A stretch of DNA of 33,489 nucleotides from Cytophagales bacterium (lineage in GTDB: Bacteria; Bacteroidota; Bacteroidia; Cytophagales; Cyclobacteriaceae): contig JAFLBR010000024.1 in assembly GCA_017303795.1 (NCBI GenBank), positions 1 to 33,489 of the forward strand, read 5' to 3'. Below, in pieces: positions 11,814 through 12,549 of this stretch. Position 1 is the stretch's first letter. Every line of letters begins with the position of its first letter. The position numbers were made by a program, and so were the translations under genes. Under the pieces are notes generated by a model. That model did not search any database and had not been told where the DNA came from. It saw only the letters and a list, made by a program, of their open reading frames with translations.

Positions 11814-11873
11814 CTGTTTAGAAGTTTTGCCAGTGCTAAACAGAATTGATGCCTGTCCCGATAGCTATCGGGA
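11814..11873. repeat. tRNA leader: 8-bp hairpin and dispersed palindrome
   Basis: CTGTTTAG (11814-11821) and CTAAACAG (11836-11843) are a perfect inverted repeat at the predicted start of the tRNA transcript. The perfect palindrome TCCCGATAGCTATCGGGA follows at 11856-11873, flanked by GCCTG on one side and GGC on the other. Both would fold in the precursor RNA ahead of the mature tRNA. Confidence 0.65.
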
Positions 11874-11931
11874 GGCGGATCTCGATAATCGGGATGCAGA
11901 CGCGCACAAGTCTTTAAATGGGTGCATGTAT

Positions 11932-12013
11932 GCCTGAGTGGCGGAACTGGTAGACGCGCACGACTCAAAATCGTGTGTCCTCGGACGTGCCGGTTCGATT
12001 CCGGCCTTAGGTA
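11932..12013 (+). tRNA. tRNA-Leu (anticodon CAA)
   Basis: A class II tRNA folds cleanly. Acceptor GCCTGAG pairs with CTTAGGT (G1-U72 and G-U allowed). The D-arm is GCGGAACTGGTAGACGCG. The anticodon stem CACGA/TCGTG encloses the loop CTCAAAA, so the anticodon is CAA. The long variable arm is GTCC-TC-GGAC, and the T-arm GCCGG-TTCGATT-CCGGC. The discriminator is A at 12013, followed by CAT, so CCA is not encoded. No terminator lies immediately downstream; the first one follows a partial tRNA copy at 12076-12108. Confidence 0.95.
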
Positions 12014-12022
12014 CATGAATAA

Positions 12023-12076
12023 TGCCTTCTGGCGTGCAGGTTCGCCCCGATAGCATCGGGGCCGGCCTTAGGTACA
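12023..12076 (+). repeat. Partial tRNA-Leu 3' copy interrupted by a palindrome (copy A)
   Basis: The 22 bases at 12023-12044 match the tRNA's variable arm and T-stem (11976-11997) at 17 of 22 positions and end in the same GTTCG. Where the tRNA has ATT, this copy has the 17-bp near-palindrome CCCCGATAGCATCGGGG (12045-12061). The exact tRNA end CCGGCCTTAGGTACA then follows (12062-12076). It has no 5' half, so it cannot be a tRNA. Confidence 0.85.
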
Positions 12077-12108
12077 AAAAAAGGATGGTGTAAGCCATCC
12101 TTTTTTTT
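12076..12108. terminator. Strong bidirectional intrinsic terminator
   Basis: An A-tract, the stem AAGGATGG / CCATCCTT with loop TGTAAG, and eight T residues. With the A and T tracts the pairing reaches 13 bp. It directly follows tRNA copy A and precedes the GIY-YIG gene, so it probably ends the tRNA-Leu transcript. Confidence 0.9.
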
Positions 12109-12119
12109 CTTCTCACCAA

Positions 12120-12419
12120 ATGCTTTCACTATTGGCAGCCGTTTATATTCTACATTCCAAAAAGCTCGACAGATTCTATATAGGAAGTTGCCTGGACTTT
12201 CAATTTCGATTTGAAGCCCATCTTAATAAGGTATATCCTAGAGGTTTTACAACAAATTCAGACGACTGGCAACTCTTTTACCTTTGTGAAAATCTTTCTT
12301 ATTCGCAGGCAAGATCGATTGAAGTGCATATCAAAAAGATGAAGAGTAAAGTGTATATTCAAAATATTGTTAAGTATCCTGATATAATAATTAAGTTGAA
12401 GGATAGATATTCATCATAA
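12120..12419 (+). CDS. Small GIY-YIG family nuclease
   Basis: A 99-residue single-domain protein of the GIY-YIG superfamily (UvrC-type nuclease domain). Seen: VYI at 8-10 and YIG at 20-22 forming the name motif, Arg30 in FRFEAHL, and Glu68 in SQARSIEVHIKK as the likely metal-binding glutamate, so the active site looks complete. The C-terminus (VYIQNIVKYPDIIIKLKDRYSS) resembles the ending common in stand-alone Bacteroidota members. The same frame stays open back to 12072 through the terminator, so a longer product is formally possible, but ATG at 12120 begins just ahead of the conserved domain. It is flanked on both sides by palindrome-bearing tRNA-Leu 3' copies, suggesting a mobile or homing-like cassette. 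Confidence 0.88.
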   Translation: MLSLLAAVYILHSKKLDRFYIGSCLDFQFRFEAHLNKVYPRGFTTNSDDWQLFYLCENLSYSQARSIEVHIKKMKSKVYIQNIVKYPDIIIKLKDRYSS

Positions 12420-12448
12420 CTCTTTAGCTATGGTAATTTGTGATAGTT

Positions 12449-12503
12449 CGATTACGAACGTGCCTGTTCGCCCCGATAGCTATCGGGGCCGGCCTTAGGT
12501 ACA
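12449..12503 (+). repeat. Partial tRNA-Leu 3' copy interrupted by a palindrome (copy B)
   Basis: The 22 bases at 12449-12470 match the tRNA at 15 of 22 positions, including CGTGCC and GTTCG. The perfect palindrome CCCCGATAGCTATCGGGG fills 12471-12488 and CCGGCCTTAGGTACA (12489-12503) matches the tRNA end exactly. The interruption is at the same base as in copy A. A small hairpin GTTCG-ATTA-CGAAC overlaps its left end. Confidence 0.85.
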
Positions 12504-12532
12504 AAAGCCTTACGAAAGTGGAAGGCTTTTTT
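12503..12532. terminator. Intrinsic terminator after tRNA copy B
   Basis: AAAAGCCTT (12503-12511) pairs with AAGGCTTTT (12522-12530) around a 10-nt loop, followed by TT. It follows CCGGCCTTAGGTACA directly, the same arrangement as the terminator after copy A, though the stem sequence differs. It can serve the GIY-YIG gene and the converging gene at 12550. Confidence 0.85.
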
Positions 12533-12549
12533 GTTAGCCCACTACCATT

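What the first reader, a model, noticed from the sequence alone, without database searches (positions are those of the whole stretch)
11932..12532. GIY-YIG gene bracketed by palindrome-interrupted copies of the tRNA-Leu 3' half
The intact tRNA-Leu(CAA) is followed by copy A, a terminator, a small complete GIY-YIG nuclease gene, copy B and a second terminator. Both copies run from the variable arm to the end (17/22 and 15/22 identity to GTTCG, then the exact CCGGCCTTAGGTACA). In both, the T-loop ATT is replaced by a CCCCGATAGC-type palindrome at the same base. This looks like a small cassette that targets tRNA T-arms, with the nuclease as a candidate mobility or homing enzyme and the copies as its footprints. 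I do not know of a described element of this form.
Basis: partly seen in the sequence, partly recalled or inferred. Interest (0 to 1): 0.78.

Follow-up and report, generated by a model that had tools for sequence, protein, structure and literature searches.

The report
tRNA-gene-invading GIY-YIG nuclease cassettes
A tiny nuclease gene sits inside a rearranged tRNA gene here, and relatives of it are parked beside tRNA genes in many bacterial groups, often with a broken copy of that tRNA whose loop holds a DNA hairpin, which looks like an overlooked class of mobile element that lives off tRNA genes.

Summary
In the window, an intact tRNA-Leu(CAA) is followed by copy A, a GIY-YIG gene and copy B; both copies hold a palindrome in the T-loop. 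In the same genome 5 of 6 small GIY-YIG frames lie just downstream of five different tRNAs. In 40 same-genus genomes 86 of 126 small frames have a tRNA within 800 bp, all 86 on the same strand; 70 of 85 testable ones have a partial copy of that tRNA beyond the gene. Inserts in copies touch D, anticodon or T loops in 51 of 62 cases (about 31 expected) and are mostly palindromic. The nuclease tree follows tRNA identity. Empty sites exist, and one with both flanks conserved shows that the copy plus terminator is the displaced original end of the tRNA gene. The layout recurs in many phyla. Best reading: a minimal homing-like mobile element that targets tRNA genes, resembling phage SegB but without a separate DNA-binding domain. 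Cleavage, the palindromes' role and the transfer mechanism are inferred. Eight searches of an open-licence library found no description.

The parts
11932..12014 (+). intact tRNA-Leu(CAA), the target gene kept whole
   Evidence: ARAGORN; Rfam tRNA
12033..12076 (+). copy A: partial tRNA-Leu 3' part with palindrome CCCCGATAGCATCGGGG (12045-12061) in the T-loop, then exact CCGGCCTTAGGTACA
12076..12107 (+). terminator-like inverted repeat with T run after copy A
   Evidence: 13-nt perfect inverted repeat; not called by the terminator scan
12120..12419 (+). GIY-YIG nuclease gene, 99 aa, catalytic domain only
   Evidence: PF01541; invariant residues Y9 Y20 G22 R30 H34 E68 K72 in alignment A3; model mean pLDDT 87
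12459..12503 (+). copy B: partial tRNA-Leu 3' part with palindrome CCCCGATAGCTATCGGGG (12471-12488) in the T-loop, then exact CCGGCCTTAGGTACA
12503..12533 (+). terminator-like inverted repeat with T run after copy B
   Evidence: by eye; not called by the terminator scan
11857..11912 (+). possible older relic upstream of the tRNA: palindrome CCCGATAGCTATCGGG (11857-11872) and a 15-base D-arm fragment of the same tRNA (11898-11912, 87% identical)
   Evidence: the repeat finder D2 and D4

Best explanation
The cassette is a minimal mobile element that invades tRNA genes and behaves like a free-standing homing endonuclease gene. SHOWN: a GIY-YIG gene of mostly 75-100 codons sits beside a tRNA gene on the same strand; in most cases a partial copy of that tRNA lies on the gene's other side; in one site with both flanks conserved the copy is the displaced original end of the tRNA gene while a full tRNA is kept; copies often carry a palindrome in a loop; units stack in tandem; the nuclease lineage follows the tRNA species; sites are empty or decayed in relatives; the nuclease is under purifying selection in the pairs that could be measured. 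INFERRED: the nuclease cuts the tRNA gene at a loop of its cognate tRNA; repair from a cassette-bearing copy (transferred DNA or a sister) inserts the unit and duplicates part of the tRNA, sometimes with its terminator or leader, which keeps the essential tRNA working; the palindrome marks the joint and spoils the leftover copy as a target or as a partner for deletion; old units decay and leave palindrome-bearing tRNA fragments without a nuclease gene.
For: Position and strand: 86 of 126 small GIY-YIG frames in 40 same-genus genomes have a same-strand tRNA within 800 bp (75 within 250), 0 only an opposite-strand one. Copy of that tRNA on the far side: 70 of 85 testable, 0 in shuffled DNA (examples). 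Loops: 51 of 62 inserts touch a D/anticodon/T loop, 30.6 expected (sd 3.7) for intervals of the same width placed at random; second set 28 of 42, 20.1 expected (sd 3.0). Palindromic at p<=0.05: 46 of 62 and 27 of 42. Insertion: the empty allele in G009 runs flank-tRNA-terminator; in L004 a similar terminator follows the palindrome-bearing copy, and the intact tRNA is followed by the GIY-YIG gene. Nuclease clades follow tRNA label: 30 changes, shuffle minimum 63 of 1000, 86 rows. Mobility: Gly cassette 94% identical over 486 bp between G018 and G024, nothing alignable outside about 700 bp, while their tRNA-Leu flank is 74%. dN/dS 0.06-0.35 in the 8 usable of 149 pairs. Tandem arrays of up to 5 units. 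Copy 3' ends are nearest to the host's own tRNA in 60 of 65, 5 ties.
Against: No cleavage, transfer or expression data. The intact tRNA in an occupied locus still holds the presumed target, so self-cutting must be avoided in some unknown way. No separate DNA-binding domain, unlike known GIY-YIG homing enzymes. 15 of 85 testable cases show no far-side copy, two of them in the window's own genome (L002, L003); 30 of 83 and 19 of 58 copies have no insert. Fidelity to a tRNA could also come from vertical descent at fixed loci; clear transfer is shown for one cassette family only, and even there tRNA surroundings are more conserved than genes (94.6% over 186 bp around tRNA-Leu in the same two genomes). 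Palindromes occur without a nuclease too. Copies were picked by similarity to the own tRNA, which favours the 60 of 65. Single-strand folding showed no consistently stable extended T-arm. 40 of 126 small frames have no tRNA near; 12 of these lie at contig ends, and most of the rest look by eye like another subfamily. Many of the genomes are metagenome assemblies.
Confidence: 0.7

Rival explanations
1. Toxin with RNA decoy: the GIY-YIG protein cleaves the cognate tRNA (RNA), and the palindrome-bearing tRNA-like copies act as decoy or antitoxin RNA beside the target gene.
For: Nuclease clade matches tRNA species; copies resemble tRNA arms with hairpins; purifying selection in 8 pairs; repeated tRNA fragments without a nuclease between them exist near Met and Val tRNAs.
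Against: A trans-acting toxin need not sit inside its target gene; an RNA decoy does not explain why the copy with its terminator is the displaced original 3' end; many copies hold only 15-20 bases of tRNA.
Confidence: 0.1
2. Two unrelated things: mobile palindromic hairpins that insert into loops of structured DNA or RNA genes, plus tRNA-adjacent GIY-YIG genes; the palindromes merely accumulate in tRNA fragments that are already dead.
For: 30 CCCGATnnnnATCGGG sites in the genome, 22 of them not within 150 bp of a tRNA; one in the loop of a terminator-like hairpin (C24:102005) and one inside the RNase P RNA gene (L148); near-identical palindromes in different phyla; 30 of 83 genus copies have no insert.
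Against: 8 of 30 lie within 150 bp of one of 34 tRNAs (P about 1e-14); the same or nearly the same palindrome at the same base is kept in cassettes of several species (Leu-caa clade, Leu-gag), i.e. it goes with the cassette there.
Confidence: 0.15
3. Scars of integrase-driven elements (phage or ICE) that use tRNA loops as attachment sites, the GIY-YIG gene being a leftover passenger.
For: Intact tRNA plus displaced 3' part is the classical outcome of tRNA-targeted integration (recalled); loops are usual crossover points (recalled).
Against: In the arrays seen, units are about 290-400 bp with the GIY-YIG gene alone, and lie on either side of the tRNA; no integrase ORF in the window between 11932 and 12532; the viral-contig scan with A2 gave 42 distant matches, best E 8e-7.
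Confidence: 0.05

Closest known systems
Phage T4/T6 SegB, free-standing GIY-YIG homing endonuclease in the tRNA gene region
   Same: GIY-YIG nuclease gene next to tRNA genes; SegB is implicated in breaks within tRNA-containing sequence and is needed for tandem amplification of a tRNA-segB unit (PMC13096335, passages seen; PMC2988022, passages seen).
   Different: Ours is chromosomal, mostly 75-100 aa without a DNA-binding domain, lies in a rearranged tRNA gene with a partial tRNA copy and often a loop palindrome, and follows tRNA species by clade. The passages of PMC13096335 that I saw describe a survey of phage and archaeal virus proteins, without preference for particular tRNA isotypes.
UPF0213 / Slx1-type GIY-YIG nucleases (Slx1 acts on branched DNA)
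   Same: Closest solved structures by sequence profile (1zg2 E 6e-17, 1ywl, then SLX1) and by fold (1zg2, 6seh; best E 0.0017).
   Different: I found no published link of UPF0213 proteins to tRNA genes (one search); Slx1 works with Slx4 (structure titles).
Integrative elements that use tRNA genes as attachment sites
   Same: Intact tRNA kept, displaced tRNA end on the far side (recalled).
   Different: No integrase seen; unit carries one nuclease gene; insertion also on the 5' side; hairpin in many copies.
Double-hairpin elements of mitochondrial genomes; bacterial REP palindromes
   Same: Short palindromic repeats thought to be mobile (search listings with the start of abstracts only); insertion in loops of structured genes is recalled.
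   Different: Not known to me to be coupled to a nuclease gene and a partial copy of the host gene.

Membership tests
Free-standing GIY-YIG homing endonuclease (SegB-like) | GIY-YIG catalytic residues | tested here: met
   Invariant Y, YxG, R, H, E in A1 (24 rows) and A3 (40 rows incl. window)
Free-standing GIY-YIG homing endonuclease (SegB-like) | separate DNA-binding domain (as in I-TevI) | tested here: not met
   Window protein is 99 aa with the GIY-YIG domain at 7-77; 80 named relatives read 52-122 codons, 78 of 80 between 65 and 125; model is one compact domain
Free-standing GIY-YIG homing endonuclease (SegB-like) | occupied and empty alleles of the target | tested here: met
Free-standing GIY-YIG homing endonuclease (SegB-like) | site-specific cleavage of the empty allele and biased inheritance | not testable with these tools
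   needs enzyme and crosses
tRNA-targeting integrative element | integrase gene | tested here: not met
   No such ORF between 11932 and 12532 of the window; other loci were not searched for integrases
tRNA-targeting integrative element | intact tRNA retained with displaced tRNA end | tested here: met
   (L004 against G009), one locus
REP palindromes with RAYT transposase | RAYT transposase in the genome | not tested
   no search made
Type III toxin-antitoxin | RNA repeats that inhibit a nuclease toxin | not testable with these tools
   no expression data

The most novel reading that the evidence does not exclude
A domain-wide, previously unrecognised class of minimal mobile elements: one catalytic-domain-only nuclease lineage per tRNA species that recognises the cognate tRNA gene by its extruded or transcribed arm, opens it at the loop, and rebuilds a working tRNA on one side while sealing the leftover copy with a portable hairpin; the elements stack at tRNA genes, decay, and leave hairpin-bearing tRNA ghosts.
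Probability: 0.35. Interest if true: 0.92.

Novelty: new variant of a known kind. Interest (0 to 1): 0.85.

Why it matters
If true, many stand-alone GIY-YIG genes in Bacteroidota, Patescibacteria and other phyla are tRNA-gene parasites. Essential tRNA genes would be hot spots of a compact homing system that keeps its target alive, and each nuclease clade would come with a predicted target. It would extend the SegB-tRNA link from phages to bacterial chromosomes, and it may explain tRNA fragments and palindromes scattered beside tRNA genes in these genomes.

Tried and rejected
Chance repeats: rejected (0 copies in shuffled flanks). Special to tRNA-Leu or to the T-arm: rejected (24 tRNA labels; D and anticodon loops too). 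All small GIY-YIG genes are tRNA-linked: rejected; 40 of 126 in the genus are not. Phage as main carrier: not supported by one viral-contig scan. A folded structure of the palindrome-bearing copy: mixed results (the L113 stretch given there did not contain the copy). An alignment of 24 nucleases (A1) was too diverse for the genome-contig scan, so a small, mainly His-type set (A2, five His-linked and one Phe-linked protein) was used, which biases the 80 named loci. The first loop expectation (about 19 of 62) ignored the width of the gaps; the fairer one is about 31 of 62, and I use that.

Rows dropped: six small-frame hits listed were not fetched (G039:C170, G031:C1:889409, G035:C28, G002:C4, G009:C1:179081, G001:C13); long frames (UvrC/polymerase type) were left out; one search says further matches were not listed; one search likewise lists part of its matches; two rows with masked N dropped from my count. 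One 'stem' row (L006) is copy B misaligned at a chance GTTCGATT; I left it in the stem count; 75 3' copies, 7 dropped for more than 6 mismatches, 3 without another tRNA to compare. One search used 8 of 149 pairs (dS 0.05-1.5). One search found nothing because its pattern was too strict; one search replaced it. Decay order in tandem arrays was looked at in two arrays only.

Full report
What is in the window. tRNA-Leu(CAA) 11932-12014 is followed by copy A (12033-12076), an inverted repeat with T run, a 99-codon GIY-YIG gene (12120-12419), copy B (12459-12503) and a second inverted repeat with T run. In each copy the T-loop holds a palindrome, and the 15 bases after it match the tRNA exactly. 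The terminator scan did not call either inverted repeat.

Same genome. PF01541 has 8 hits: two in long frames, one 207-codon frame without a tRNA in its locus, and five small genes that all lie downstream of a tRNA on the same strand: Leu-gag, Ser-gct, Ser-gga, Met, Leu-caa. The genome has 34 tRNAs above the Rfam cut-off, so 5 of 6 within 150 bp has P about 7e-12. Three of the five (Leu-gag, Met, Leu-caa) have a tRNA copy beyond the gene; the two Ser cassettes do not. The palindrome CCCGATnnnnATCGGG occurs 30 times and 0 times in the reversed control. 8 of 30 lie within 150 bp of a tRNA (P about 1e-14). By eye, six of these sit in partial copies of Arg-ccg, Thr-ggt, Phe, Ser-tga, Leu-cag and Gly-gcc tRNAs with no GIY-YIG gene in the copy. 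I read these as ghosts of lost cassettes (inference).

Same genus. In 40 genomes I examined 126 small-frame hits. 86 have a same-strand tRNA within 800 bp and none has only an opposite-strand one; 40 have none, 12 of those at contig ends. Median distance from the domain edge is 44 bp when the tRNA precedes and 29.5 bp when it follows, for the 75 within 250 bp. There are two forms: if the tRNA precedes the gene, a 3' part of the same tRNA follows the gene; if the tRNA follows, a 5' part precedes the gene. A far-side copy was found in 70 of 85 testable cases, in 15 not, and in 0 shuffled controls. In several of the 30 loci printed the terminator is duplicated too, and in G014 Glu the leader. Units stack. 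In the two arrays I looked at, the unit furthest from the tRNA is broken (G024, Leu-caa) or the most divergent (G029, His).

Where the palindromes are. Around 133 distinct tRNA genes there are 98 copies; 15 overlapping another tRNA were set aside. 53 of the 83 kept copies hold at least one insert and 30 hold none. The 62 inserts: T-loop 29, D-loop 14, anticodon loop 8, stem 9, others 2; 46 of 62 are palindromic at p<=0.05. Any-overlap with a D, anticodon or T loop is 51 of 62, against 30.6 (sd 3.7) for random intervals of the same width. A second set from the phylum gives 28 of 42 against 20.1 (sd 3.0), after two N-bearing rows were dropped; there 39 of 58 copies hold an insert. With one row per tRNA label, insert sequence and position the genus count is 47 of 58 against 28.7. 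Related cassettes share inserts, so rows are not independent.

Insertion shown. For the Met cassette L004 the relatives G009 and G018 have empty sites with both flanks aligned. In G009 the order is flank, tRNA, terminator. In L004 the flank and whole tRNA are followed by the GIY-YIG gene, then the palindrome, then the tRNA from about position 29 to the end and a similar terminator. So the distal copy is the original end of the gene. For the window's own tRNA-Leu, G009 has an identical tRNA with an 81% similar left flank and no nuclease, and G008 has a broken homologous nuclease with a longer copy that holds palindromes in both the anticodon loop and the T-loop, with both flanks similar. Of 30 tRNA-Leu(CAA) loci fetched, 9 show nuclease signal (one in two frames, one a fragment), 3 end within 120 bp downstream, and 18 show none in the DNA held.

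Specificity and mobility. On a tree of 126 nucleases the 24 tRNA labels need 30 changes; 1000 shuffles gave 63 or more (86 rows); with one row per genome and label it is 30 against 55 or more (75 rows). Vertical descent would also give this. The window's nuclease groups with the Met cassette of its own genome and not with the Leu-caa clade, but its branch is long; I read this as a change of target. Transfer is best seen for Gly: 94% over 486 bp between G018 and G024, with nothing alignable outside about 700 bp, while their tRNA-Leu flanks are 74% alike over 1051 columns. A caution: the 186 bp around tRNA-Leu itself are 94.6% alike in these genomes, so tRNA surroundings are conserved anyway; the Gly nuclease domain is 92.6%. 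The 3' end of each copy is nearest to its own genome's tRNA in 60 of 65 cases, with 5 ties (selection of copies favours this). Eight usable pairs of 149 give dN/dS 0.06-0.35.

Breadth. In 198 genomes of the phylum 133 have a match to A1; of the 30 loci returned, 28 have a same-strand tRNA near. In the GTDB collection 80 loci were returned for A2, the best 80 of 208: 65 have a same-strand tRNA within 800 bp and in none is the nearest one on the other strand; 15 have none, 5 at contig ends. A copy was detected in 49 of the 65. 29 of the 36 loci outside Bacteroidota or unplaced are tRNA-linked, from Patescibacteria groups, Chlorobiota, Ignavibacteriota, Nitrospirota, Omnitrophota, Chloroflexota, Thermodesulfobacteriota, Myxococcota and Armatimonadota. 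Loop palindromes appear there too, e.g. CCTGCCTGCCGGCAGGCAGG in a Parcubacteria Ser copy and a Chlorobiota Arg copy. The viral-contig scan gave 42 distant matches.

The protein. Sequence profile and fold put it nearest UPF0213 proteins and Slx1, then I-TevI's catalytic domain (best fold E 0.0017). The model is one domain, mean pLDDT 87. NCBIfam gives a match below its cut-off to group I intron endonucleases for two of four proteins (the window's among them), PHROGs weak matches to homing endonucleases for two of three but not for the window protein.

What is known. T4 SegB lies between tRNA-Arg and tRNA-Ile and is a homing enzyme (PMC2988022, passages). In T6 it is needed for tandem amplification of a tRNA-Tyr-segB unit, and segB is frequently near tRNAs in phages (PMC13096335, passages). 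In the 2006 GIY-YIG survey the word tRNA occurs three times, for a methyltransferase fusion and in two references (PMC1564403, passages). Searches listed no paper that I could recognise as describing chromosomal tRNA-inserted GIY-YIG cassettes; only listings were seen for most, and only an open-licence part of the literature is held.

Verdict. A real, recurrent and apparently undescribed arrangement. I hold the homing-like reading at 0.7. How the nuclease spares the intact tRNA, and what the palindrome does, are open.

Noticed in passing
G032:C31:63027-63103 and G008:C5:6642-6718 against L004: The same tRNA-Met lies inverted relative to its conserved flanks in two relatives; inverted repeats nearby might mediate this.
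   Followed up: no
L148:1501-1516 (G000:C1:81621-81636): The same palindrome class lies inside the RNase P RNA gene, near its 5' end, in what looks like a hairpin.
   Followed up: partly
L164:1006-1021 (G000:C24:102005-102020): A palindrome sits in the loop of what looks like a terminator hairpin between tRNA-Leu(TAA) and tRNA-Gly.
   Followed up: no
L041 upstream of tRNA-Met; L098 upstream of tRNA-Val: Repeated 5' tRNA fragments with gaps at loops and no nuclease between them (L098 D-loop palindromes).
   Followed up: no
L161:1501-1516 (G000:C12:316488): A palindrome interrupts a second copy of a short stretch that includes CCGCTCGGAACCTCC; no Rfam family matched at gathering score. Possibly the same process at another structured RNA.
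   Followed up: partly
L087 and L090 (Arg-ccg copies): L090 carries one palindrome-like stretch more than L087 at the same place, as if hairpins nest in hairpins.
   Followed up: no
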